Both the position numbers and the translations under genes were made by a program. From assembly GCA_904066235.2 (NCBI GenBank), contig CAJFCV020000002.1:1798001-1862000 (forward strand): DNA of 64,000 nt. Reading direction: 5' to 3'. Positions 3,901 through 62,223 of the stretch are shown piece by piece; the first letter of the stretch is position 1; each line of letters opens with the position of its first letter. This DNA is from Bursaphelenchus xylophilus (taxonomy: Eukaryota > Nematoda > Chromadorea > Rhabditida > Aphelenchoididae). The notes beneath the pieces were generated by a model, which saw nothing but the letters and a program-made list of their open reading frames with translations, made no database searches and was not told the origin of the DNA.

Positions 3901-4798
3901 GCTGCTATCACAGTGACGGACTTGATCCAATGGCAAAATACCTAACTTTTTGGGAAGTATCAAAAAATGCGGCAAAATGCCTCCATTTCTTACTAAAAAA
4001 CTCCCGTTTGTAGAGCGCGACCCGTTTTTTTTACTTCGAAGGGGAGGTATTTTGCTACATTTTTTGATACTTCCGGATGCCAGTTGGTACGTTTTTTACC
4101 ACTGGATTAGATCCGCCATTGTATGTAGATTCAAACCTTGCCTGCGCTGTGCAGAAACGAAACAAATTTTTTGACCGAATGCTGGGAAAAGTGACGTTTT
4201 TTTGCGAATTTTGGCATGAGGAGGTAGATACCTATATAGTTCTTCTGTAGAGCGTCATGAATCTGCAAAAAAAATCTATTTTTTCTACGGGAAACCGGCA
4301 ATTATACGACCACATCTTTTTTTCTGTAACCGTTCTCCACGTTTTGCGTGCTCTCTCGGCCAAAAAAATTGTTCAGAATTCTTGTAAGGCGCGAGCTTAG
4401 ATTTTCAGAGCATTAATAAGTGTCCTGTACCCGAAGTATGTGCAAAATGTAAAAAAATCTGGACGTCATACCAAGGGACCTTCCTTATTAGAGTATCATA
4501 CCTATACGCTTCCTTTCAGACCTTCAACGCCCTCCCTCACAGTCTCTTTTTTACCCCACAACTCCGACAATGTTATATTGATATTACTGCCACTCGACAT
4601 AAAGGCGCCAATCTCTGCGCCAGCATCAATAACTGCAAAATTGATTACGAAAACAGTCCTGGTTGTGCGACTGTCTCCGCAGAAGATGAAGCATACATCA
4701 ACGGGAAAGTAAACTTTTACGTGCAGCGCAACCTGCGAATACTGGAGAAAGCCAACTGTAAACTTCCTTTGGGTAGACCGGTGATTTTCGAGCGATGA
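933..4798 (+). CDS. GT92 (DUF23) family glycosyltransferase, copy A
   Basis: Six exons, 933-1016, 1064-1161, 1860-2103, 2400-2871, 3514-3860 and 4520-4798, join in phase to a 507-residue protein. The start MLFRVS is followed by a hydrophobic stretch (GAVLVVAGIVLLCL), the signal anchor of a type II Golgi membrane protein. The lumenal part contains PIDVFVAS, then LNTMLPDT, then CLSRTFYYENWQ. The GT92 signature is TDMDDLIIP, whose Asp cluster is the likely metal/nucleotide-sugar site. The C-terminus carries conserved Cys residues. GT92 enzymes such as worm GALT-1 add beta-1,4-galactose to core fucose of N-glycans; the substrate here is inferred only at family level. Start chosen because it supplies the anchor and matches copy B (MLKRVP). 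Introns 1 and 3 are absent from copy B. Intron 5 carries a MITE. Confidence 0.88.
3909..4123. mobile_element. Family 1 MITE in intron 5 of GT92 copy A
   Basis: Inverted-repeat element with ends like CAGTGACGGACTTGATCC and GGATTAGATCCGCCATTGTA. The inner arms give 'CGGGAAGTATCAAAAA' in one orientation and its complement in the other. It is a diverged copy of the family abundant in this window. Confidence 0.75.
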
Positions 4799-16713: not shown

Positions 16714-19939
<3,226 letters not shown>

Positions 19940-24313: not shown

Positions 24314-24529
24314 GTACTGTGGAGGACCTCATCCAGTGGTAAAAAAAGTATCATTTTGCATCCGGGAAGTATCAAAAATGTGATAAAATGCTTCCCTCTC
24401 CAAGTGAAAAAACTCCGATTTCAAAAGCGCGCCCGCTCTTTTTGTGAGGGGCCCTTCAAAACGGAGTTTTTTCACTTGGAGGGGGGGGCATTTTGCCACA
24501 TTTTGATGCTTCCCACAAAATGCTACGTA
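24314..24529. mobile_element. Family 1 MITE, right end truncated
   Basis: The left arm CTGTGGAGGACCTCATCCAG and both inner arms are present. The right terminal segment with GATCAGGTCC is missing, and the sequence runs into AT-rich DNA. Confidence 0.75.
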
Positions 24530-24554: not shown

Positions 24555-24782
24555 TACAGTGGAGGACCTGATCCAGTGGCAAAAAACATACCATTTTGCA
24601 TCCGGGAAGTATCAAAAAAGTGGTAAAATGCTTCCCTCTCCAAGTGAAAATACTCCAATTTAAAAGCGCGCCCTTCAACGCGAAGTTTTTTCACTTGGAG
24701 GGGGAAGCATTTTGCCACATTTTTGATGCTTCCCGGATACAAAATGGCACGTTTTTTGCCACTGGATCAGGTCGCTCACTGT
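24555..24782. mobile_element. Family 1 MITE, full copy
   Basis: It starts TACAGTGGAGGACCTGATCC and ends GGATCAGGTCGCTCACTGTA. It sits in tandem with the truncated copy 25 bp upstream. Confidence 0.85.
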
Positions 24783-25447
24783 ACTTTCTCCACGGGAAAG
24801 ATGGTTTGATAGTAAAGCCGATCCTGTGCATAAAGTGCAAGCTAAACTTTCAGCAATTGAAATATGGTCTATATATACTTATTTTAATACGGGTCAAGTT
24901 TAAAGAAGATCTGAATGCCGCACAGGGAAGTTTTCCTTTTGTTAGCTATGCCATATAACATTTCCTTTGTAGTTTCCTTTGTTTTTACTTTCAACGCCAC
25001 TACGCTACTTCCTTGGTCTAAAAATTTCATCAAAAAAATGACCGATTTCGTTAGCAAAATGACCACCAAAGGTGTTCCAGAATTGGCAGGTGTTGCTGTG
25101 TTTATTAACAAAAGATTTCGTCCTTGAACGTGTGCTTTAGACCATGTTCTCTGACATTTGGCGTAGTTTTATTACTTCCGCGGTTATGTGTAAAATTCGG
25201 TGTCATTATTCAAGCGATTAGAAGTACATTAAAACACGTTTTCCTCCGCTTTCGCAGGTGTACGGCAACGTATAAAAACGCATTGTACGATGCTAGTTTA
25301 CTGTTTTTTCGATTTTGATAATGTTCTTTTACTTATATGAAAATATCGAGAGGAGTGACGTCATGTTTGTTTTGAAAGATGACGAGGAAAATGCCGCGAA
25401 GTGAAGCGTTTTTATTATAAAAGTTTTATAAAATTTTTGTTTCAGAA

Positions 25448-28722
<3,275 letters not shown>

Positions 28723-30292: not shown

Positions 30293-33200
30293 TCATTTAA
30301 TCGGTGGTACCTGCAGAAGGTCTGGGTTAGATTCCATAATTCTGGACAACAATCCTCCCGTATATTCTTCCAGATCTCTGATTCTATTCTCTTTTAGTTG
30401 TAGCTCTTTTCTCAAGTGTCTAATCACATTCAGCAGGTGTTCCTTCGAAGTGTTGTCGCTCAAATCGTCCAAAATTCCGGGCCCTCCGTTCGAGGCGAAT
30501 CCCGAGGACGACGCGATACTCTGGGCGCGGGAATGGCGCTTCGAATTCGCTTCATCAAGGTTGTCATCCACGGAGAGGACGGATTGACGGTTGTGGTTGC
30601 GATTTAGGAGCTTGTCCGCCTTCTGCCGGAGCTGAAAAATCAAAGGGAATTTAAAAAAAATTTTTGTGCTGCAGTGACGGACCTGATTCAGTGGCAAAAA
30701 CGTAACATTTTGCATGCGGGAAGCATCAAAAATGTGGCAAAATGCCCCCCTCTCCAAGTGAAAAAACTTCGTTTTTAAGGATTTGCCTTCACAAAAAGAA
30801 CGGACGCGCTTTTGAAACCGGATTTTTTTTCATCTGGAGACGGAAGCATTTTGCCACACTTTTTATACTTCCCGGATGCAAAATGGTAATTTTTTTCCAC
30901 TCTATCAGGTCCATTACTGTAGAATAAAAAGCGTATTTTACCACTCCCCCAATTTATAAAGCCCTCCCTGATTTTCAGGGTTTTCGTGGTGGGACCCAAA
31001 AATTAAATAAAAATTCGAATTAAAACTCCGGCTAAACTTTCCAACAGATCAAAAGGGGCTTAGTAATTCCCAAAATAACATATTCACTCCACCTCAAAAG
31101 TTTTCGCTTCGAGAGCCACCAAGATTCCCAAAATTCTGGTCCCGCCACGAAAACTGGACAAAATTAAACACTCTCACAAATTCACTAAAACCACTCACTT
31201 TAGTTGCAAAATTCTTCTTTCCACTGTCGGGATTCGCATTCTCTTCGGCGATATTCATCGAATACTGGCTTATTGTGTCTTCTTTCGGGTTGGGGAAGGC
31301 GCTGAGCATGGCGGAGCTTCTGGCCGAGACATCCCGGTTCAATGGGACGTCCGCAAAAGCTGGGTGTGGATCGGATGGAGTCGATTGAGGGGATTCAAAC
31401 TGAAATTAGGGAAATAAAATTCGAAAAAAATTTTTGGGTCCCACCACGAAAACCTTCAAATATCAAAAAATTGGTCAGAAATCGCTAACAATCTAAAGTC
31501 TGTATACAATTTTCAAGCTATATTCAGCACTTCTACTGCTCATTTATCATTCCCTTCGCTTAAAAAAATTTAAAAAAAAATTCTCTAGGTCCCGCCACGA
31601 AAACATCTTAATCTTCAGAACTCGCCAGAAATCAATAAAAATATTGGTAAATCCCATCAACAACAATTTCAACACCAAAAATACCCATTTTATACACTTT
31701 TTTTTAAAGCCTTCGGGTCTCACCACGAAAACTTGACAACCCTCAAAAAAGCGGTCAATCCCCTCAAACTCGTTCCTACCTGTAGTTCCTGTTGTGGATG
31801 TGGCGAGGCAATTGGTGAGAACGCAATGGCCGACGAATTTGAACAGATCGAAGAGCGCCTCGAGATCGCGTACGAGGCCATGGACGCACGGTCCAACTGG
31901 GCCTTCTTCTTGTTGCGGAATGGGATGTGGCGCTTGAATTTGTCCATTTTATTCTCTGCAAAGGCGATTTTTTATAATCGAATCAATTTTTATTCGAATA
32001 TCAATCGAATAAAAGAAATGCAAATACTTCTTGGCCTTTGGGAGGAAATTTTCGAAAAAATCAAGACTTTTGGCCAGTTTAGAGAAAGGCTAATTGAAAT
32101 TCAGGGTTCTTGAGAAATCTCAAGTAATAAAACAACACTTGCCAAGAAAACAAAAACCCTGTTTTAACAGAAAAAAGCGAAAAATCAATTTCGGCGCAGA
32201 AATTTTCAAGTATTACCCAAAAATTCCCCAAAAATCTCAAAAAACCTGCCTTTTTCAATTTCATTCAGCGAGAACTGCGAGATGGAGGTGTTAAATTGAT
32301 TGCTGAATTCATAGGACATCAAGATTTGCCCTCGCAACATGTCTTCTTTGCCTTTTTTATGGAGATCATACCACTTGGCCGATTGCGTTTTTGGCATGTC
32401 CGCGAGTCGAAAACTTTTGGTCGCCAACGTCTCAGCATTACCTAATTTGGCCTTGTACTTGATGTTAATCAACAATTCGCTGAAGGTTTCGTTCACATTG
32501 CTGAAATCCGCAAGATTTTTTATATTATACTAGACAGTCCTGGTGGAAATGGCAAAAAATTGATTTTTCACTAAAAAAATCGGTTCGTAGTTAAGCCAAA
32601 TGATTACAAATATCACAACAAAGGTGTGTAGCTGCTGTAAAATTGATTTACTCACAATTCAAGATGCTCATTCCAGTCGCAAACTCCATTTTCCAATCGA
32701 GTCGTGTTGGTGTCGACCTTGGCGCGAAACTTGCTGTGGCCGATCAAATTCAATGAGCAATACGAATCCAAGGCTCTGCCGTTCTTCGTTGGAACATCTC
32801 GCACTCGGATTACTGTAAAATTATTTTATTTTTTTCGTATTTTTGGCAAAAATGTTAATTTATTTTTTAACTTCCAAATTTTCTAAATTTCCTCCAAAAA
32901 ATCGGTAAAACTCAAGTCAAAAAATGATTTTTGACTTGAAAAATCATTTTTCTTACTGTGCACGATGAGTGTGTTGTATTGCGAGGACATTCCGGCAGCT
33001 TGTCGGGCCTTTATCGCCGGTTTGAACGTGTTTTTGAAGGCCTTCGAGAGCTTGGTGGCAATGAAAACTTTAACCGAAGAAAACTTGAGCTTCTTGAGGA
33101 AACGCTTGTCTCGGCGGTTAGATTGAGCAACTGCGGGGTCTGAAATCTCATAATCTTAAGTATTACGGACTAAATAAATTTGAAATTTTCTAAAAAAAAT

Positions 33201-33932: not shown

Positions 33933-36900
33933 TTAGTTTTCATCAGAATCTTCCTCTTCAATTAGCTCTTCTTCACTTTCCACGTCCACCTCGGCTCCCG
34001 AGTCCTCTTCAACACCATTTTCTTCAGCCTTTCCATTACTATTTCTTCTTGCTTTAGGCAATTTTTCGTCTTCTTCTTCGCTTTCCTCATCCGAACTTGC
34101 GCCCACTTCATCTCCCGATTCAAAAGCCATTTTGGCGTCCGGCCCATCGGCTTCGTATTGTAATCGAAGGAGGACGATGCTATTCTTGGCCTCCGGGACT
34201 TTGAACCATCTTCCGTTTTTGTGTTCTTGGCCGACGGCAATGGCCAAGGTTCGGCCGTCCTCGCTGAATTTGATCGAGTTGACGAAACCGGCCTTAAAAT
34301 TCGAGGATATTGGGAGGAAATGGTTTCCTACACTACACTTAAAATTTCATTTTTTTCAACTTTTTATATAGTAAAATACGACTTGTTGTTGATCGGTATT
34401 AATCAAGGTGTTTTTATTTTAATAAAATATGTATTTGAAAGAAGCTGGGAGGGAAAAACTTTCATGGGTAATACAGTGGCAGACCTGATCCAATGGCCGA
34501 AAACGTACCATTTTGCACCCGGGAAGTATCAAAAAATGTAGCAAAATATCTCCCTCTCCAAGTAAAAAAGACTCCAATTTCAAAAGCGCACTGTGAGGAA
34601 AGGGCGCTCTCTTCAAAAAGGAGTTTTTTAGTTGGAGAGGGAGTTATTTTGCTACATTCTTTGGTACTCCCCGGATGCAAAATGGTACGTTTTTTTGCCA
34701 CTGGATGAGGTCCGTTACTGTATTACTCATAAAAATTTCTTTGCCCAAATTTTATCCCAACTTCTTTCAAATACATATTTTATCAAAATAAAAACACCTT
34801 CTTGATTAAAACCAACCAACAACAAGTCCTATTTTACCACTTTCACCCACTAAAAACCAAATTTTTTACTTTATTTTAGATCTCGACACCCCCAAAAACC
34901 TCTAAATTTCTCGTTAATCAAGCGTTTTCTATTATTATCAATCTATATCAAAGTCGATTTCGGAACACTCTCCCTCTATTTTTTACAACACACTTCAATT
35001 TTTCAAATTCCTCGAACAAAAAACAGTCGAAAAACGTTTTCACCAGTAATTCAGGAAGAAGAGCGCGATAGACGTGAAACCACAAATATTTTCGGTAAAC
35101 ATAAAGTTCAATAGACGATTTTAAGAGGGTATTATCATCCGACGTGTATTTTACTTCATTCATAACTGTGCAAAACCAAAAGGTAAACCAAAAATACCTA
35201 TTACAATATAAAACCCATACTTTTTGGTCAAAGGTTAGCTATTTTTGATGAAAAAAAAACATCTATACAGCTGATATAAGCCCCAAAATTTCTGATTTAC
35301 AATCAAAGCCCTTTCAGGTCATTGATCGATTATGAAATTCAAATTTCCGATGAGAAACAAAAACGGAAATAGGCGAGTCTGCGTTCCCCTTGCCTCCATT
35401 GCCCTATTGATAAGCCGAAGTCAACAAGAGCCTTCGAAACTATCGGAAACGCCATGATCTTTAAGAAAAAATCAAAATCACACAAGGCATATCAAAGAAG
35501 TTTTACCTTATTTTGACTTGTCAACTACCAAGTCAAAATAAGTTAAAACTGCCTTCATCAAGTGAGACTCCGTAAATAGCACCTGTTAACCCGATTAAAC
35601 CACCCGCTGGCAGGTGAGGAATTGACGAAAGGCTTTTCAACGCGTAATCCGGTCAAGACTTAGAGCAATATCAATCAATTTTGCCTTCAAGACACTAGAT
35701 ATCTCATGGATAATACAAATAAAGCTTCTTAATCACCAACTTCTCTCAAGTCGATCATAAGGAGAGGCCAAAATTTTTTATGATAAAACTCAAAAAAGCA
35801 AATAACAAATCGGTTTGATTCGAGGAGAAAAACATAAAAAGCACGCCCTTTTCCCTTGAGGCAGCAATTTTGAGGAATTCTCGAGCAAATGTCAATCAGT
35901 GGAGGACAAAACGAAGAATAAATTGAGGTCTGGAATAAGGGCTCTCGCGAAAAATACGACAATTTCGCGCGAATGGCGTGAGGGTCAGAGGGATCGGAAA
36001 ATGGAGAATATGACCTTCTCATGTTATTGAATACTATTCAAAGACTGACCTCTTTGCATTTACTATCCCTGGAGTCAAAACACACAAAAGACCAGGCGTT
36101 CTTTCAGCGACAGACTTTGGAATTTCATGATCAATGAGGCGTTCCATAAAATCATTGAATATTGCCTACTCATAGTTCAAAACCTCATAAACCACAGAAC
36201 GAGAGAGGTTTTAGACCTGCTCCGTCAAAGCAGTAAAGAGTTTCATGGAAAACTGTTGAAAACGGCTAACTTTGTCGTTTTCACAAGGCATAATGAGCGC
36301 TTCCATGTGAGAAAGCCCTCATTATGCATTCTAATCAAGAATTCCGGACATTTCTTCCTCAAAACCGCTTTGTAAGACAGATTGTTACTCATTCTTCAAG
36401 ACTCAAATAATTTATGAATCTCAATTTCGCAATATAAAGATTGTAAAAGGGCGGAAGATAAGACTCCAACGCCAATGACGATGAATACACAAGAGAACAT
36501 GATATTTATTTTATTTACCGCGCGAATAAACCCGTACACTACAGAAGCAAGATAAATGGAGTAATCAGTTGGGAAACAATGCGGTATCATACTAATCGCG
36601 CTCAAAAGTCTTGACAATTTTCGCACCGTGCATTCTTCTTTCATTTCGCATTTGTCGCCGCAATTTCCCTTTTTTCACTAGCGACATGCACTTTTGCGCG
36701 CGACGAACCCGAATTTGCAGGGGCGACGTCCAAAACCCAAAGTTTCGCACGGTGCGAAAATTGTCAGGACTTTTGAGCGCGATTAGTATTCTAGAACAAA
36801 AAGTCGGAGTTTCAGGGTCCAACCATCCGCTTAATCCAAAACATCATATAGCATTTTACGACCAGAAAAAAACTACTTCCAATTCTCTCAACCAGGCTCT

Positions 36901-39900
36901 AATTTCTCCTCGAAGTTGGGGGAAAAGCGTCTCTCTTCCAGTGAAAGCTCATTCCCCTTGCAAATGTTAATTGGGATCTCGGATCGAATTACGCAACTAC
37001 ATTAATTTTACGACAAGAACTACTCGCAGGCATCAAAAACCGCAAAAAAATTGGGTAGAAAAAAACGGGTGAGTTAAATATATTGCGCGACGGTTCTGCT
37101 GTACATCTTCTACATGATGTTTCCTTCGGGTTTTTTGCGCTCGATCGCCTTCGATTTCTGGGGCCTCAAAAAGCAAATAAAACAAACTTGCTTCAGACTT
37201 ATTCCGCTCGTGCAAAAAACACACGACTAAATCGCCGATGGGGGCGTCTTTGAGCGGCTTAAGGGCTATTATATACACTAAAAACCTCGGGCGCTATTAT
37301 AAGGTATTGTTTCGCAATTTTATGGCATACTACGCAGGGTTAAGGGAAAATTTAGAGGAACTAATGGGGAAAATTAAGATTTCGTTATCAAAACTAGTGG
37401 TGTCTATCATTCAACGAGCAAAAAATCTACGTATACTGTTAGTATAGTGATGATAAGTCTATCCTTAAGCCGATTTGATATTAGTAATACGAACGAAATT
37501 TAGATGACACCTTCATTCAATGGGCGAATAAATGATCCACATGTGTGGTGATGGACAAGACGAACAAAATAAGGAAGACATGTTCCGCTTTCCGCTTCAT
37601 AATGTCATCAAAGGACAAAAAAATCTGCCCATTTCGAACAAACTCCTTTTCGATTCCAAAAAACCCTCTAATTCATCCAAGATATCACGTATAAAGAACA
37701 AAATCGGCATTTCAACCATCCCAAGAGCCTTTTCGCATCCGTTGAGACATCAAATTACGCTAATGGACTTCCAAAATGTACAAAAAATCTTTGTTATCAT
37801 TTCCAGTTTTTGCAGCAAAATAAAAATTTTGCGGAAAAAACATCCATCCAGAAAACAAAACATTTCATCGCATTCAAGATCTGGAAGTGGAGTGAGAAAT
37901 CGGGTTTGAAACCGGGATTGCGTAACGCATACAGGGATGTTTACGTTTTCGGGTCGAGTCTTATTCAAACTCAGAAACCTACGGAAAAGTAAAAATTTTC
38001 CTGTTCCTTTTATGAATAATCAAGAGCATTCAGCAGCACAAAACTGAATGGCAAAACGGAATGCAAAAGAGGGAGTCTTTTGTAGCTTGTAATTTCGGAG
38101 AAACAGGAATAATACCGCGAAAACTCGAGATTTCGAGGAAGAGAGCTGCAGAATTTGAATGACAATCGGGAATGCAAACGACAACAGGGATTCGACAAAA
38201 AAAAATTAGTCCAAGCGCCATGAATGAAAAAAAGAGGCTCAAAATCAGGGTGTCGTTGGTAAAAAGGCCAAGAAAGAAGTCAGAATGAGCTCGAAGTTGA
38301 TATGAATGACTGACTTTCATATCAAACCCGAGCCCATTCTGACTTCTTTCTTGACCTTTTTATCGACTAAAACCGTACAGAAGATTAACCCCAGCGGTTG
38401 TTCGAGAAACTGCTATTCATGCAACCATTATCGCAATTCTTAGAATCAAAGTCAACTCTCTTCTACAACAAGAGAGTTGAACTTGATTCTAAGAATTGCA
38501 ATAACGATACGATTGTCATACCTCTTTCCAACGTCTCGTGCTATTTCAATTCAACACGGAACGTTGGAAAGAGATATGACAATCACTCTTCTCAAAGCCA
38601 AATGAGCACCGATTTCACCGTTTATCCCTCGGTCTAAACGTACACAGAACGAGACATCCTACTTTACGAACACCAGTCAAATCGAACATCTCTTTCCACA
38701 ACGGAATCATTACAAATTTCCGCTCACTTCCTTTACAACCTCAAGACTGTAATTATTTCTTCGAACCCGCTATTTTCTCCGCTGCGGAGAGCGGAAATCC
38801 ACCACGCAACGAAATTGCCGTGAGGGATCTCTTACTTCCCAACGTAACGAGTACTTGAGCGATTCTAATCTCGATTCGTTCCCATTTTTTCGCACCTTGT
38901 GCCCTCCGGGAAAAGGGAAAAAGTCGGATTCCTTTCATTTCGAGACGCACAAAAGAAATTAAACGGAGCGAGGGCGAAGACAACGCTGGGCGATTCAAGA
39001 GGGCGAGAAAAAGTGAGGGAAAGTCAGAGTAAAAACTTGGTTTCATCCTTGAATTCTGTGAAGCAAAACGACGATCGAGGAAGTAAGAGGACACTCCTAT
39101 CATGACAAATCAGACCTCAACGACTCAAGATATCAGAATTCAAACTGATTTTTCATCAAAAAAATCATCGTTTCCTTCATTATCTCATCCCTAGTATAAT
39201 ATTCCACAAAAAATATCTCTCCGTTCAAGCCAAAGACGCAAGTCAATCAAGTCAGAAGACATTCAGAGGGATCCAGAAGACATCAAAATCATCAGCTTAT
39301 TACGCAGCAAGATTCCTGACCACTTCCGATTATCCATTTCTCACGCTTGTTCTTGCAGCCGCAAAAAAGCAACAGGAACTTCTCAAAAAACCAACAATCC
39401 GCGCTATCATGCCTAATTAACCTCCATTTCGACTTGATTTCTCAATTTTTTTCGGATATCCATTAGACCTCTGCCTTTTGTCAAATACGTCATGGAATCC
39501 GATTTTATGGCTCTGTTATTGTTTGTACAGACGTTTCAAAGGGTTTATGGGTTTTTGGAATGAATAAAATTGCAAAAAAATAATGGAAAACAGCAAACTT
39601 AATTCTCTTTTATATTATTCATGAAAAAAAATTTTTCTTCAAAGTGCTTTCTAAAACACTTTATCTACCGTAATCCTTCTATATCAGCCCATTCCTATCT
39701 ATTCCACCATGTTGTGAGTAGAATTTTGCCACATCTTTCTCATCTAATCTCAAAATCAAGAGCTTACCACTTCTCCACTTACAATTTCGAATGTATCCAC
39801 CAGCGTCAAGGTCTTATAGTCCTCACCGACCTTCCATAATTTGAGCACACCATCTGACGAGCCCGAAACAACAAGATCACTGTAAGGTCGAGCGGCAATC

Positions 39901-41497
39901 GAAGTTATCCATCGTGTCTCGCCAGTTTTTTCATCCGTTCCATGAGCATCACGGACCAAGCAGACGGGCTTTTTCTTGAACACCGACCACACATATATCG
40001 ACCTAAAGGCCAAATAACAAAAGATAAATTATCTTACCCATTCATCTGGCCTGAGACATAATGATCTTCATTTATCATGGCAACACAATCCACGCTGACC
40101 GCATCGACCATTCCATTGAATACAAGCTGACTACTGTGTTCAATCTTGAAAAGATGAATTGTCCGTGCAGTTCCTCCAGCTGACACCAACTTAGGTTTGT
40201 TTAGCATGTCAATTTGTGTAATGGGGTCTGAATGTCCATATAAAACTTCGACAAAACCCATCTGCTCCAGATTCCATGACTAAAAAGAACTTAATTCATA
40301 ACTTTTATCAAGAAAAACATTAGAACAACTTCAAAAATTGAAATTTCCGCATATGATGTCAAGTGCAATATAAAAATTCCGACTTACCCTAATGGCCTTG
40401 TCTGTACTCGCTGAATAAAGCTCATTTGTCCCTGTTCTAAACGCCAATGACGTTATTGGCCCTCTATGACCCCTTAGATTTTTGACATGCTTCAAATTGG
40501 ACAGCTGATATACTCTAATTAAAGTGTCATCTCCACCCGAAGCAATGTATCGATCGTCTCCTGATATAGCTACACATTTGATTTGGCCTTTGTGTAATGT
40601 CTTGTCAGGATTTTTCTTTTGTGGCGCTAGTTTTCCAACAATCTTTTTCGTCTTCTGATCATCTGAAAGGTCATGGATGAGAGATAAGTGACCGATGAGG
40701 ACCCAAAAAAAATAATCAAAAAACTAACTAACATTTAACAATACTTCCATCTTTTGAGCAACTAACAATATACCGCCCATTATTGGAGATGGCCACAGAA
40801 ACCGGTGAAAATCGATGTGGCCGATAGACAATCGTCTTCTCTTCGTCGACAACAACTGTGTCAGCCACCCGTCTATGGAATTTGACAGTCTTTTCCAAGG
40901 CATCCTGCTTCAATCTATGAGATATTGCATCATAATCGGCATCTTCTTCTTCATCCGAATCTTGGACTTCAGGCTTTCGAGGTTTGTTGTCTTCCTGAAG
41001 AAGTGAGCGATAAAGGCCGTAAACATAAAAAACAAGAACGCTCTTGACGCTTCACATCCTTCTCTGCCAGCCAAAAATAAAAAGAACTCGGTGAAAGAAC
41101 GAAAAATCGTCTGTTGGACATTGTGTAATAAAATTGATGCCAAAAACACCGATAGCCCGCTCTAACCAGTTAATAACCACTATTAAAAAGAAAATTAAGC
41201 AACTTCCTTGCTTCTATTACAGTCTCCTTCACGTTTTACTCCTAAATACCAAGAACAAACAAAAATTAAAAACCATACCTTCAATTTCTCCAGAAAATTT
41301 TTGGATTCTCTGTAGGCTTTGGCATGAGCATCCTCAAAGTCGTCCTCATCGCTAACATCAGCAAGAGGATGCCTCTCTACCTCATCCTCATCTGACGAGA
41401 TCTCTTCGTCAAATTTCGGCTTTTTCACCTTGTCAACGGCTTTCTTCGGGCCTCTCCCCCGTTTTTTGGGACCACCACGTTTCAGAAAGAAGGACAT
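33933..41497 (-). CDS. rrp-9: U3 snoRNP-associated WD40 protein RRP9 (U3-55K)
   Basis: Six minus-strand exons, 41279-41497, 40733-40994, 40388-40662, 40038-40279, 39783-40002 and 33933-34292, encode about 525 residues. The N-terminus MSFFLKRGGPKKRGRGPKK is basic and followed by acidic runs, typical of nucleolar proteins. At least six WD-type repeats follow (for example GQIKCVAISGDDRYIASGGD, GHRGPITSLAF, GFVNSIKFSEDGRTLAIAVG). AVGQEHKNGRWFKVPEAKNS is a diagnostic RRP9 C-terminal motif. The protein binds U3 snoRNA for 18S rRNA processing. The tail ends in a long Asp/Glu-rich stretch. The fifth exon has a second in-frame donor at 39768, five residues longer. The last intron is about 5.5 kb. TTTCAG|GCATG at the start suggests trans-splicing. 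Confidence 0.9.
34472..34722. mobile_element. Family 1 MITE in rrp-9 intron
   Basis: It starts TACAGTGGCAGACCTGATCC and ends GGATGAGGTCCGTTACTGTA. Confidence 0.85.
35497..35554. ncRNA. Candidate pre-miRNA-like hairpin 1
   Basis: The arm GTTTTACCTTATTTTGACTT faces CAAGTCAAAATAAGTTAAAA across an 8-base loop, with one mismatch in a stem of about 21-24 bp. Strand of expression unknown; the host intron is transcribed on the minus strand. Confidence 0.4.
36288..36327. ncRNA. Candidate hairpin 2 (short)
   Basis: GCATAATGAGCGCTT pairs with AAGCCCTCATTATGC, 14 of 15 positions, around a 10-base loop. Shorter than a typical pre-miRNA. Confidence 0.25.
36591..36787. repeat. 197-bp element with 41-bp terminal inverted repeats
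   Basis: The left arm begins ACTAATCGCGCTCAAAAGTC and the right arm ends GACTTTTGAGCGCGATTAGT. The arms are 41 bp and match at 40 positions. Each arm's inner end is GCACCGTGC or its complement. Only one copy is seen in the window. Confidence 0.85.
38260..38362. ncRNA. Candidate long hairpin 3
   Basis: A stem of about 47 bp: AAGAAAGAAGTCAGAATGAG on one side and CCCATTCTGACTTCTTTCTT on the other, with a few mismatches and a loop of about 8 bases. Could be a long-hairpin RNA or a decayed fold-back element. Confidence 0.4.
38433..38499. ncRNA. Candidate pre-miRNA-like hairpin 4
   Basis: The arms GCAATTCTTAGAATCAAAGT... and ...ACTTGATTCTAAGAATTGC pair at 28 of 30 positions around the 7-base loop CTACAAC. 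Total length is 67 bases, close to nematode pre-miRNA size. Confidence 0.5.
38511..38584. ncRNA. Candidate pre-miRNA-like hairpin 5
   Basis: Starts GATTGTCATACCTCTTTCCA and ends TGGAAAGAGATATGACAATC. The 30-base arms match at 27 positions with a 14-base loop, giving 74 bases in all. It lies 11 bases after hairpin 4, like clustered miRNA precursors. Confidence 0.5.
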
Positions 41498-41776: not shown

Positions 41777-42814
41777 ATGTTTGAAAGTCCGTCTCGCAGT
41801 AACGCCGATCTGGTCGAGTTATTGAAGAGTAAGTCGATAGAATCTTCTCAAAAAGTCATCGAAAGGGTACTGTAAACATCAAAGGTCATATTTACTATAA
41901 AAAGGGCATGTCACTTATCGGTGATTTTTAGGAAAAGGTGCATATACGTCTGATGTGGTGAAGAAGGTGTTGCTATCGGTGGATCGTGGTGATTATGCCA
42001 GAGTCGCGCCGTACTGTGACATGCCACAGAGCATTGGGTTTAACGCAACAATCAGCGCTCCTTTCATGGTACGGTTTCCCCTTTTTTGATAAGATTTTTT
42101 GTTAGTTTAGGTAAAGAGCTGGCGCTTTATTAAAAATAGCTGTAACTTTGTAACGCTATTACTAAGAGTCTTCAAATTTGGACTGAAGATGCCTCAAATA
42201 ACCTTTTTTGATTCCTAAGAATGTCAAAAGTTACAGTAGCCTACATTTTTCAGCACGCTCAATCTTTGGAACGCTTGGCTCCAGTAATAAAAGAGGGCTC
42301 ACGAATTTTGGATATTGGCTGTGGTTCTGGTTATTTGACAGCTTGTCTTGCTAAGATGGTTGGTCCTAATGGCAAAGTGGTTGGTATCGATCACATCCCA
42401 GAGCTAGTGGAGCTCTCAGAAAGGAATATTCGCAAAAATAATGAGGATTTACTGGAATCCGGGCGAATTATTTTGGTGGTTGGGGATGGACGTCTTGGCT
42501 ACGCTGAGGAAGGACCTTATGACGCGATTCATGTGGGTGCCGCTGCTCCGAAGATCCCACAGGAGGTGAGGATTAATATCAAAATTTTTTTTGTCAAATA
42601 CGCGGTTTGTTCCCCGAAATATATGGCCTCGTTTTAGTTAGTAGATCAACTAGCTCCCGGCGGCCGAATGTTGATCCCAGTTGGAGTCGCAAATCAGGAA
42701 TTTTTGCAAGTTGACAAGTCAGAAGATGGAAAAGTAACTGCCAAGAATTTATTCGGCGTCATCTATGTTCCATTGACCAGTCGAGATCATCAAATGAAAG
42801 GTCGTCAATTCTAA
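41777..42814 (+). CDS. pcm-1: Protein-L-isoaspartate O-methyltransferase
   Basis: Four exons, 41777-41828, 41932-42068, 42254-42565 and 42638-42814, encode 225 residues, the normal PIMT length. Landmarks are [33 protein letters not shown], the SAM-binding motif [40 protein letters not shown] and [12 protein letters not shown]. The enzyme methylates isoaspartyl residues in aged proteins and starts their repair; it is cytosolic. The first donor used is AGA|GTAAGT, because only this keeps phase 1 into exon 2. The start [17 protein letters not shown] is the only in-frame ATG after a stop. AATAAA near 42966. Divergent from rrp-9 and convergent with tubulin cofactor B. Confidence 0.93.
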
Positions 42815-44938: not shown

Positions 44939-45580
44939 ATACCTAAAATAGGGTGAAAATTGTCGTTTTATGGGGAGATCTGGGTGGTGAAGAGCCGGTG
45001 GATCTTCAAGTTTTGTCAGGATGACATAATCTGCTCTATAATATTAATATTCTAGCATTTTGAGCGTTCTAAGACTAATTTTATACTTGAGGTTTTCCAA
45101 AATCTCAACATACAGTGAGGGACCTGATCCAGTGGCAAAAAACGTATCATTTTGCATCCGGGAAGTATCAAAACTGAGGCAAAATGCTTCCCTCTCCAAG
45201 TGAAAAAAACTCCGATTTGAACTGCGCGCCCTTTCTCTCACAAATAGAGTGGGCGCTCTTTTGAAATCGGAGTTTTTTTCACTTGGAGAGGGAGGTATTT
45301 TTCTGCATTTTTTGATATTCCCGGATGCAAAATGGTTCGTTTTTGGCCAATGGATCAGGTTCCTCTCAGTATTTAGTATAGTTTTGGAAAAGTGAAGTAT
45401 AAAATTAGTCTTAGAACGCTCAAAATGCTAGAATATTATCTTATAGACCAGATTACAGCATCCTGACAAAAGTTGAAGATCCACCGGATGTTCACCATCA
45501 AGATCTCCCCAGAAAACGGCAATTTTCACCATATTTTAGGCATTTTTAAGTCAAAAACGACCTTCGATCTGCGTCTATGG
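44915..45580. repeat. Large palindrome centred on a MITE
   Basis: The arms at about 44915-45108 and 45375-45580 are inverted copies. AGCATTTTGAGCGTTCTAAG occurs left and its complement right, as does GGTGGATCTTCAA-TTTTGTC. The middle 260 bp is a canonical family 1 MITE. The right arm's outer end reads TTAGGTCCTCCACTGTA, resembling another family 1 terminus. Confidence 0.85.
45111..45371. mobile_element. Family 1 MITE at palindrome centre
   Basis: It starts TACAGTGAGGGACCTGATCC and ends GGATCAGGTTCCTCTCAGTA. Long inner arms CTTCCCTCTCCAAGTGAAAA and complement. Confidence 0.88.
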
Positions 45581-49900: not shown

Positions 49901-52900
49901 ATCCATGGTCTAAATTTTAGTTCAAAGAGAAATTGAAGAACAAATGGCACGAATGCAAGGACAAAGGTGGAGTCATCAACTATGACCTGAACTGCATGTA
50001 CAAATTGCTGGATGGAGATTACAATCTTTCCATTCAGGTGAGAAAAAATTATTTTTCTCCCGCCATTTTTGCGGGGGAAAGGGCGCGCTCTTCAAAAAGA
50101 AGTTTTTTCACTTTGAAAGGGAGGATTTTGCCACATTTTTCATACTTCCCGGATACAAAATGATACATTCTAAAAATCGAAATTTAATTTTCCCTTCACA
50201 GTCGAGCCCAGTTTGAATTTTTTTTATCTTCAGCTGAACGTCGAACGAGGCACCCTGCGTCGGAAGCCGATGCGCTTTCAAAGCATTGTCCAGCCCTTCA
50301 ACATGCATCGATGGAATTTCACGAAGCTGAGACCTTCAGAAGTGATGTTCTATGCCCGCTGCACTGACAACCACTACACGAACGACCCGCTGGACACGCA
50401 CACGATCTGCGTGAATGCCTCTCCCATCGAAAGTGGCCACTTTTTATTTGTGCCATCGCTTTCGAAACGGCTTCCGCAAATCATGACCGAAACGGGAATA
50501 CGAATGGCCACGGACCTGATGCTCATCGTGGAAGACGAGAACTTTCACGTGCTGTATAATTCGCTTCTAGGACAGGCCTCGCTGAATCACTTACATCTCC
50601 ATGGATTGTTCTGGCCTTATGAGTCGGATCTTATTCATAGGGTAGGTTTGTGGGGAGTTGAGAGGATTTTTGAAGGTTTTTGGGATTAAAAAAAGAAGAA
50701 TTTAGGTTCTAAACTTACTTTTTTCGCTGAAAAAAGACATTTTTATAAGAAAAAAGTTCGAAAAATGGGATTTTTTCATCAAAATTCGTTTGGGTTTTAC
50801 TGTGGCGGACCTGATCCAGTGGCAAAAAACATACCATTTTGCATCCCGGAAGTATCAAAAATGTGGCAAAATACCTCCATTTCCAAGTGAAAGACTCCGA
50901 TTTCAAAAGCGCACCCGCTCTTTTTTGCTTTTTTAAAGGTGCGCTCTTCAAAACGGAGTTTTTCCACTTGGATAGGGAAGCATTTTGCCACATTTTTGAT
51001 GCTTCCCGGATGCAAGATGGTACGTTTCTTGTCACTGGATCCGGTCCTCTACTGCATTTAAAAAAAAAGGTTTAATTTTCCAGCGCTTCGAGCTTCTCGC
51101 CGGCGATTGTTACGTGATCCGCCGCCCCGACTGGTACATTCATTGCTTTTGCTACCAACTCCAAGGACCCGACTCCTTCGATTCGTTCGTGAAAAACGTG
51201 TGGCACACCCTGAACTTTTTGACGGTCCACAACGTCGCTCACAACATGTTCTTCACGCGCGCTCCACCCCTCCGAACCCAGCCGCCGGTCCGCTTCGAGC
51301 AGCCCCGAGACGCACCTTCACTTGTTACCGTTTACATATTCCCAAGGCAAAGCCAGGCCGGCGCCAAGCCCATGAACAATTTCAATCCAGCCGCACTGGA
51401 GCTGGCTGGATGCTTGATGGCTTATAGTAAGGGATTTTATAAAAAAAAATATATTTTTTTTTTGAATTTTTTTTTGACTTTTAGGCCAAAATAAGGTTGA
51501 ATAGAAGAAAATTTTGAGGGTTGTTTGGAGTTTTTTGGTCTAAAAGTTTTCCGGAAATTGTGTTTTCCGGATGTTTTTTGAACAATTTTATATTGCACTA
51601 TGTTAAATCTGCTAGAATTTTTTGACCTTTGGTCGAAAACCAGGTGGAATATTGAATTTAGAGACTGAATTTTTAAAATTGTCTAGTTGGTGGTAAATAA
51701 TTTTTTTTTTGATGATTTTGATATGTAAAATAAGGTCGAATTTTGAATTTTCAACTTTGGTGTGGTCTACCTTGCTTATTTTTAGATCTGAAATTCTTCG
51801 AAACGGCCACTGAACAAAGTTGTATCCGGACCTTTGACGAGGACGCTGCCTTGGATGATCTTCACTTTGAAACGGTAAATGTGATTTTTGGTCCGTTTTT
51901 ACAAGGGAATTACCCCAAATGTGCGACACTCAGATTTTTTTAAAATTTTGCACGCAAGTCGGGCATGGACTAAGTATCAATTCCTGAAAGTTTTAGCTCG
52001 CGCTTTGCGGGCGCCGCCGAGATATTGAACGCTCTTTGCCGCCGAGAGAGCACACTAAACGTGGAAAGCGGTCAGAGAGGAAAACGCTTTTTGGCCACAA
52101 CTTTGCCAGTTTTGTGCGAAAAAATTTGATTTTTTGTGGAAACATTATCCTTTAGAGTTGAAATAGGCATGAAACTTTTCGTGCCGAAATTCGGCAAAAG
52201 TCCTAAATTTTGTTCCTGAAAATCGCGAGCTAAAAATTCCTGAAATTTTTAGCTCGCGCTTTGCAGGCGCGGCCGAGATATCGGACGATTTATGCCGCCG
52301 AGAGAGCACGCTAAACGTGGAGAGCGGTCAGAGAGAAAAGCGCTTTTTGGCCATAACTTTGGCAGTTTCGTGCGGAAAAATTTGATTTTTTGTAGAAACG
52401 TTATCCTTTACGATAGAAATGGGCATGAAAAGTTTGGTGCCGAAAGTAGGCAAAAAGTGTCAAATTTTCGCCGACTTTCGATCTACAAATCTCGGTTGTT
52501 TCTGCAAAGCGCGAGCTAGGATTCTGGCATATATTTTAGAAAAAATTATTCTAAATTTGTGCCAAGTTTCATCAAAATTTGAGCGTCGCACTTGGGGTAC
52601 TTCAATTGATAGCTATTAAGAAATTTTTTCAAAAAAAAACATTTTTGACAAAATTTTTTTTTTTTGAAAAATTCAAATTTTTTTAAAAATAATTTCAATA
52701 TTTTTCCAGCTAGCCCTAGAATTGGCCCAACGCCTGCTCGGCCGCGTCCCCTGGGCCGCCCAAGTTCCGCCTCCATCACTCCGGGTCTCCTCATCCGACG
52801 AGTATGAGCTAACTGAGCTTGAAGAACTTTGCGACTCTTTCCACACGGTCTCAGTCCCCGTTCCGTTGAAGCCCCTCAAACACCATCGATCCTTTAATTT

Positions 52901-53506: not shown

Positions 53507-53731
53507 TACAGTGGCCACTACTGGGGAACTTTTTCCAAAAAAAATGTGGCAAAACGCTTCCCTCTCCAAGCGAAAAAACTTCGTTTTGAAGGGCGCCCCA
53601 TAAAACAGAGTGGTCGCGCTTTTGAAATCAGAGTTTTTTCACTTGGAGAGGGAAGCATTTTGCCACATTTTTGGATACTTCCCGGATGTAAAATGTTACG
53701 TTTTTTTCCACTGGATCAGGCCCCCATTGTA
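53507..53731. mobile_element. Family 1 MITE, left arm shortened
   Basis: It starts TACAGTGG, then departs from consensus for about 35 bp. The remaining inner arms and right end (CACTGGATCAGGCCCCCATT) are intact. Confidence 0.75.
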
Positions 53732-61976: not shown

Positions 61977-62223
61977 TACAGTGACGGACCCGATCTAGTG
62001 GCAAAAAACCTACTATTTTGCATCCGGGACGCATCGAAAATGTGGCAAAATGCTTCCCTCTCAAAGTGAAAAAAACTTTGTTTTGAAGGCCTTTCCCTCA
62101 CAAAAAGAGCGCTTTTGAAATCGGAGTTTTTTCACTTGGAGAGGGAAGCATTTTGCCACATTTTTGTTACTTCCCGGATGCAAAATGGTACGTTTTTGCC
62201 ACTGGATCAGGTCCATCACTGTA
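61977..62223. mobile_element. Family 1 MITE, full copy
   Basis: It starts TACAGTGACGGACCCGATCT and ends GGATCAGGTCCATCACTGTA. The right end abuts a family 5 element. Confidence 0.87.

What the first reader, a model, noticed from the sequence alone, without database searches (positions are those of the whole stretch)
38433..38584. Two adjacent pre-miRNA-like hairpins in the giant rrp-9 intron
Hairpin 38433-38499 (28/30 arm matches, 7-base loop) and hairpin 38511-38584 (27/30, 14-base loop) are separated by only 11 bases. Their lengths (67 and 74) fit nematode pre-miRNAs, and internal mismatches sit where miRNA duplexes often have them. The two stems are unrelated in sequence, so this is not one fold-back repeat. 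I recognise no known seed. Seeing the pairing is direct; the miRNA interpretation is inference.
Basis: partly seen in the sequence, partly recalled or inferred. Interest (0 to 1): 0.8.

Follow-up and report, generated by a model that had tools for sequence, protein, structure and literature searches.

The report
Three miRNA-like hairpins in nematode intron
An intron of a ribosome-assembly gene in what appears to be the pine wood nematode carries a tight row of three strong RNA hairpins that look like young microRNA genes, but only small-RNA sequencing can show whether they are used.

Summary
The hairpins are real. H1 (38428-38504, 32/35 arm matches) and H2 (38511-38584, 27/30) fold far better than shuffled sequence. 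All three lie in the predicted last intron (5,490 nt) of rrp-9, encoded on the minus strand; the genome is almost certainly Bursaphelenchus xylophilus. Genome searches found no second copy of any, although the window is full of a different fold-back repeat. No comparable row occurred in 240 kb sampled elsewhere. All three fold better as minus-strand (rrp-9 sense) RNA; of 11 arm mismatches 8 are G-U on that strand, 1 on the other, 2 on neither (modest evidence). H1's 42-pair stem is close to the ~41 bp preferred by the C. elegans Microprocessor. Against the miRNA reading: stems are more perfectly paired than known B. xylophilus pre-miRNAs, H0 is too long, no known family matches, and no small-RNA or comparative data could be reached. 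Best reading: a young, sense-intronic, miRNA-like hairpin cluster (about 0.5). Live rivals: unprocessed fold-back DNA (0.3) and siRNA-type hairpins (0.15). New member of a known kind; expression unproven.

The parts
34293..39782 (-). predicted last intron of rrp-9 (5,490 nt), donor GTAAGT at 39782, acceptor AG ending at 34293; splice sites predicted by eye, not by transcript
   Evidence: flanking exons match human U3-55k/RRP9 residues 346-418 and 421-465
38511..38584 (-). H2: hairpin, 27/30 matched arms; 35 pairs and 8-nt loop as minus-strand RNA; first in transcript order
38516..38577 (-). [quoted passage not shown]
   Evidence: rule from passages of PMC9976908
38428..38504 (-). H1: hairpin, 32/35 matched arms, 7-nt loop; 42 pairs as minus-strand RNA with flank (4 of them below a 3-nt bulge)
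38435..38495 (-). [quoted passage not shown]
   Evidence: rule from passages of PMC9976908
38260..38362 (-). H0: third hairpin, 42/47 matched arms, 9-base gap between arms; 54 pairs as minus-strand RNA with flank
35491..35558 (-). further short hairpin in the same intron (21/22 core arms at 35499-35550, loop 8), no second copy found; possible outlying member, not counted in the cluster
36288..36327 (-). further small hairpin (about 16 bp) in the same intron; too short for a pre-miRNA; not counted in the cluster
39756..40028 (-). open frame holding the penultimate rrp-9 exon
33933..34346 (-). open frame holding the last rrp-9 exon

Best explanation
A young, single-copy cluster of at least three miRNA-like hairpins lies in sense orientation in the last intron of rrp-9 in B. 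xylophilus. It would be transcribed as part of the rrp-9 pre-mRNA (minus strand) in the order H2, H1, H0. Drosha/Pasha would cut H1 and H2 about 25 bp below their loops and Dicer would then release ~22-nt guides that load into Argonaute and repress targets by seed pairing; H0, with a longer stem, would be cut less precisely. Shown: the hairpins, their non-random stability, the lack of other copies, their clustering, the intronic position (predicted) and better folding of the sense strand. Inferred: transcription, processing, silencing, and their youth.
For: Far more stable than shuffles. No second copy by DNA or pattern search. Row of three short-loop hairpins seen only here in 304 kb scanned. 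Minus strand, the rrp-9 sense strand, folds better for 3 of 3; mismatches 8 G-U on minus, 1 on plus, 2 other, against 69 to 72 in 42 control hairpins (one-sided P 0.02). H1 stem 42 pairs and H2 35 against the ~41 bp preferred by the C. elegans Microprocessor (passages of PMC9976908). Intronic nematode miRNAs are mostly sense: 15 of 17 in Brugia and 5 of 5 in H. contortus (passages of PMC3282659).
Against: No small-RNA reads and no related nematode genome could be reached. Stems are more perfectly paired than known B. xylophilus precursors: 0.93 (H2), 0.94 (H1), 0.89 (H0) against 0.69-0.86 in 4 measurable controls; fewer interruptions and a more extreme energy index than 5 known ones. H0 (54 pairs) is too long, and H2 (35; 40 with weak basal pairs) falls short of 41. 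The 6-nt H2-H1 spacer leaves little single-stranded flank. Arm divergence (9-11%) is like that of the decaying fold-backs in the window. Within-hairpin lopsidedness of G-U is common in controls too (94 majority, 47 minority). No Rfam family at gathering score. Most nematode miRNAs are intergenic (passages).
Confidence: 0.5

Rival explanations
1. Unprocessed fold-back DNA: local inverted duplications, for example by template switching during replication or repair, in a long and weakly constrained intron, now decaying neutrally. The RNA hairpins exist in the pre-mRNA but make no small RNA.
For: Fold-backs are common in this genome: 42 control hairpins of score 18 or more with loops up to 80 in about 304 kb, 26 stable folds at z below -6 in 240 kb. 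Arm divergence of H0-H2 resembles that of the fold-back repeats. The three have similar divergence, as one mutational episode would give. The same intron holds at least three further fold-backs.
Against: Most control fold-backs have larger loops or belong to one repeat family; only 2 of score 18 or more with loops up to 20 in 240 kb, one low-complexity and one long and AT-rich. Consistent G-U direction on the sense strand, though weak.
Confidence: 0.3
2. siRNA-type hairpin RNA (like Drosophila hpRNA or nematode endo-siRNA sources): near-perfect stems cut by Dicer alone into one or more siRNA duplexes that act on near-perfect targets.
For: Near-perfect stems; H0 long enough for two duplexes. 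A 22-nt stretch of the H2 arm recurs with 1 mismatch at C1:4134399-4134420 and would pair with the H2 3' arm at -30.1 kcal/mol.
Against: No target-derived longer match: similarity at C1 stops at 22 nt, the site is in AT-rich DNA with no assigned transcript and the mismatch is central. At up to 3 mismatches the reversed control pattern had 3 hits against 2 non-self hits. No comparable site was found for H1 or H0. hpRNA stems are usually much longer (recalled).
Confidence: 0.15
3. Transposon fold-backs (MITE) like the many in the window.
For: The window has ten copies of one MITE-like fold-back, one of them in the same intron at 34500-34693.
Against: H0-H2 share no sequence with it and have no second copy in whole-genome searches; the tool warns that such counts are lower bounds.
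Confidence: 0.03
4. H/ACA snoRNA: two hairpins with hinge and tail in a ribosome-assembly host gene.
For: Two adjacent hairpins in an intron of the gene of a U3 snoRNP protein; such introns often host snoRNAs (recalled).
Against: No ANANNA motif in the minus-strand linker and no ACA tail seen after H1 (minus) or H2 (plus); no internal pocket; no Rfam snoRNA at gathering score, only sub-threshold hits such as snR83, 17.7 bits against 75.
Confidence: 0.02

Closest known systems
Nematode intronic miRNAs and miRNA clusters (Brugia pahangi, Haemonchus contortus; PMC3282659, passages read)
   Same: Several hairpins within a few hundred bases, in sense orientation in an intron of a protein-coding gene
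   Different: Those have sequenced small RNAs; here none could be checked. H0-H2 stems are more nearly perfect than the B. xylophilus precursors measured
Known B. xylophilus miRNAs (PMC2953492; outline, Results parts 1-2 of 3 and section 13 read)
   Same: Same species by exact matches of its species-specific miRNAs; hairpins of similar size and, for H1, similar pair number (novel-09 39, let-7 41)
   Different: None of the miRNAs printed in the parts read resembles these arms by eye; the 761 novel candidates are in Table S2, which could not be read
Drosophila hpRNA / endo-siRNA hairpins (PMC10292708, PMC10317233; search listing only)
   Same: Near-perfect stems; possible near-perfect target
   Different: H1 and H2 are short and pre-miRNA sized; no target-derived long match found
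Plant MIRNA genes born by inverted duplication (PMC3237417; search listing only)
   Same: Young, near-perfect, lineage-specific hairpins
   Different: Animal host and pathway; no parent locus found for H0-H2 beyond the 22-nt C1 match
The window's own MITE-like fold-back family
   Same: Inverted repeats of about 10% arm divergence; one copy in the same intron
   Different: Many copies, mostly longer arms and larger loops

Membership tests
animal miRNA gene | stem-loop precursor, at least 50 and under 200 nt, at most 7 mismatches and no asymmetric bulge over 3 nt in the duplex (criteria from passages of PMC12594335) | tested here: met
   H1 and H2 well inside, H0 103 nt
animal miRNA gene | two arms sequenced as a duplex with 2-nt 3' overhangs, 20-26 nt, at least 10 reads, at least 75% precision (PMC12594335) | not testable with these tools
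   no small-RNA reads reachable
animal miRNA gene | imperfect stem-loop as in known precursors | tested here: inconclusive
   paired fraction 0.93, 0.94, 0.89 against 0.69-0.86 in 4 of 5 known B. xylophilus miRNAs
animal miRNA gene | stem near the ~41 bp preferred by the C. elegans Microprocessor (PMC9976908) | tested here: inconclusive
   H1 42 met; H2 35 (40 with weak basal pairs) near; H0 54 not met
animal miRNA gene | membership in a known miRNA family or seed | tested here: not met
   0 Rfam matches at gathering score; 38 sub-threshold matches up to E 10. Not required for a novel miRNA: only 1 of 5 known B. xylophilus loci reaches a gathering score
animal miRNA gene | conservation of the hairpin in related species | not testable with these tools
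   no nematode genome other than the window's own is held
siRNA-type hairpin RNA | near-perfect or parent-derived target elsewhere in the genome | tested here: inconclusive
   one 22-nt 1-mismatch site for H2, none as close for H1 or H0
siRNA-type hairpin RNA | phased or multiple siRNA duplexes | not testable with these tools
   no small-RNA reads reachable
MITE / transposon fold-back | multiple copies in the genome | tested here: not met
   (lower-bound searches)
H/ACA snoRNA | ANANNA hinge, ACA tail, internal pocket | tested here: not met

The most novel reading that the evidence does not exclude
A newly born, lineage-specific small-RNA polycistron: three sequence-unrelated, near-perfect hairpins of similar arm divergence that arose together in one rrp-9 intron and are processed from the host pre-mRNA as a tightly packed array, between miRNA and hpRNA in kind, with at least one near-perfect target site elsewhere (the C1 site). 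It would be a snapshot of several small-RNA genes being born at once.
Probability: 0.15. Interest if true: 0.65.

Novelty: new member of a known kind. Interest (0 to 1): 0.42.

Why it matters
If the hairpins make small RNAs, they add a lineage-specific miRNA cluster to a nematode that is a serious forest pest, and tie its expression to a ribosome-assembly gene. Three unrelated hairpins of similar arm divergence side by side would also be a useful case of how new small-RNA genes arise. If they make none, they are a good warning against calling miRNAs from folding alone in a genome rich in fold-backs.

Tried and rejected
Transposon fold-back: disfavoured for H0-H2. Whole-genome DNA searches returned only the loci themselves. 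Pattern searches returned the arms plus these other places: for H2 one with 1 mismatch (C1) and one with 3; for H1 one with 3; for H0 none with up to 3 for one stretch and one with 2 for another. The tool calls its repeat counts lower bounds.

H/ACA snoRNA: rejected. Known miRNA family: none at gathering score; the 38 sub-threshold matches up to E 10 are spread over unrelated, mostly miRNA, hairpin models and were not taken as evidence. Literature: six 15-17-nt arm fragments, in U and in T spelling, found in 0 papers; this covers main texts of the held library only. Supplements could not be read, so earlier sequencing of these arms (for instance among the 761 candidates of PMC2953492) is not excluded.

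Stability scan as sole evidence: not enough. At z below -6 the scan gave 26 places in 240 kb of other sequence, 17 of them without the repeat's marker words (copy number of those not tested), and 14 in the window. Rows dropped: novel-23 from the paired-fraction comparison, because my helix picker returned a 7-bp helix; L031, a chance match of a degenerate pattern, from the known-miRNA controls. The C1 site was followed up but no transcript could be assigned; my chance estimate of about 0.002 for a 1-mismatch hit was worked by hand. The G-U direction test was made after seeing the data. An earlier count said 9 of 11 mismatches are G-U on minus; one search shows 8, and 8 is used here. The 2,000-base C6 stretch L030 was fetched but not analysed.

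Full report
What is there. H1 at 38433-38499 and H2 at 38511-38584 fold into long hairpins; 0 of 200 dinucleotide shuffles was as stable in each of four folds. An inverted-repeat scan extended H1 to 38428-38504 (32 of 35 matched) and found a third hairpin, H0, at 38260-38362 (42 of 47, arms 9 bases apart). Three Markov shuffles of the window gave no inverted repeat of score 18 or more. In the genome search with 38380-38640, H1 and H2 matched only themselves and their own reverse complements, not each other.

Where it is. Minus-strand open frames on both sides match human U3-55k/RRP9: 39756-40028 aligns to residues 346-418 and 33933-34346 to residues 421-465 of chain 7mq8_SG. The last frame matched RRP9 chains only (3 of 3 hits); the other two frames match many WD-repeat proteins, RRP9 among them. 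The hairpins therefore lie in the last rrp-9 intron, predicted as 34293-39782. The genome (78.25 Mb, 8 contigs) is unnamed, but three species-specific miRNAs of B. xylophilus from Table 4 of PMC2953492 (novel-09, -06, -23; 3 of 3 searched) occur once each, let-7 occurs once, and the first 22 bases of novel-18 were found. The neighbouring PIMT exon is 71% identical to B. okinawaensis; no B. xylophilus protein was among the 120 listed.

Is it a repeat? The window holds ten copies of one MITE-like fold-back, but H0-H2 are not of it. DNA searches returned only the loci themselves. Pattern searches allowing 2-3 mismatches returned the arms plus four isolated places: for H2 one with 1 mismatch and one with 3, for H1 one with 3, for one of two H0 stretches one with 2.

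How unusual is it? In 20 regions (200 kb) the scan with loops up to 40 gave 5 hairpins, four MITE-like and one low-complexity. With loops up to 20 and score 18 or more, 24 regions (240 kb) gave 2, one low-complexity and one long and AT-rich; the rest of the window gave 4, two MITE-like, one in the same intron (35499-35550) and one at 52215-52267. With loops up to 80 there were 42 control hairpins in the same sequence, so fold-backs as such are common, and 26 stable folds at z below -6 appeared in 240 kb, so stability alone is not rare. A row of three short-loop, unrelated, near-perfect hairpins was seen only here. The sample is about 0.4% of the genome.

Which strand? All three fold better as rrp-9 sense RNA. 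Of 11 arm mismatches, 8 are G-U on minus, 1 is G-U on plus and 2 are neither. Controls are balanced overall, 69 to 72, though single control hairpins are often lopsided (94 majority, 47 minority). One-sided binomial P is 0.02: modest, and made after the fact. Transcription-linked mutation bias could mimic it (recalled).

Is it like a miRNA? Passages of PMC9976908 give a C. [quoted passage not shown] H1 has 42 pairs, H2 35, H0 54. Passages of PMC3282659 show intronic nematode miRNAs mainly in sense orientation and miRNAs often clustered, though most nematode miRNAs are intergenic. The structural criteria of PMC12594335 (passages) that need no reads are met; those that need reads could not be tested. 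The stems are more perfect than known precursors: paired fraction 0.93 (H2), 0.94 (H1), 0.89 (H0) against 0.76, 0.86, 0.85, 0.69 in 4 of 5 controls; energy index on minus -1.36 to -1.88 against -0.65 to -0.94 in 5 known miRNAs. New precursors are expected to look so, but so are siRNA hairpins and fresh fold-backs. Rfam has no match at gathering score, which says little, since only let-7 of 5 known B. xylophilus loci reaches one.

A possible target. A 22-nt stretch of the H2 arm has a 1-mismatch copy at C1:4134399-4134420, without similarity beyond it. It lies in AT-rich DNA about 2.4 kb before an open frame that reads like a GPCR exon (name by eye). The H2 3' arm would pair there at -30.1 kcal/mol with a central mismatch. 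The reversed control pattern had 3 hits at up to 3 mismatches against 2 non-self hits, so only the closeness of this one hit is notable. It is a lead.

Verdict. The best reading is a young, sense-intronic, miRNA-like hairpin cluster in B. xylophilus (0.5), with unprocessed fold-back DNA (0.3) and siRNA-type hairpins (0.15) as live rivals. Mapping existing small-RNA libraries would decide it.

Noticed in passing
window 3953-4074, 24375-24504, 24555-24783, 25734-25875, 30661-30930, 34500-34693, 45181-45301, 50807-51047, 53540-53672, 62004-62197; also L004, L005, L009, L020: A common MITE-like fold-back family with arms around GGAAGTATCAAAAAATGTGGCAAAATGCTTCCCTCTCCAAGTG, in the window and in sampled loci on other chromosomes.
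   Followed up: partly
window 36587-36790: Inverted repeat in the same rrp-9 intron with arms of about 45 bp starting TACTAATCGCGCTCAAAAGTC and about 110 bp between them; looks like another MITE. Copy number not tested.
   Followed up: no
window 35491-35558 and 36288-36327: Two more small hairpins in the same intron, both folding better on the minus strand; no second copy of the 911-base stretch that holds them was found.
   Followed up: partly
L029:4399-4420 (C1:4134399-4134420): 22-nt stretch with one mismatch to the H2 arm in AT-rich DNA, about 2.4 kb before an open frame that reads like a GPCR exon.
   Followed up: partly
window 42212-42637: PIMT exon whose best database match (95%) is a record labelled UNVERIFIED_CONTAM from a penguin (Eudyptes) assembly, probably nematode contamination.
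   Followed up: no
L027:7431-7591 (C2:1757431-1757591): A long fold-back (70-bp arms, 21-base loop) about 40 kb from the window, without the common repeat's sequence in its arms. Copy number not tested.
   Followed up: no
window 16900-17300: Long simple tandem repeat giving spurious open frames of alternating residues (HIHIHI / TYTYTY).
   Followed up: no
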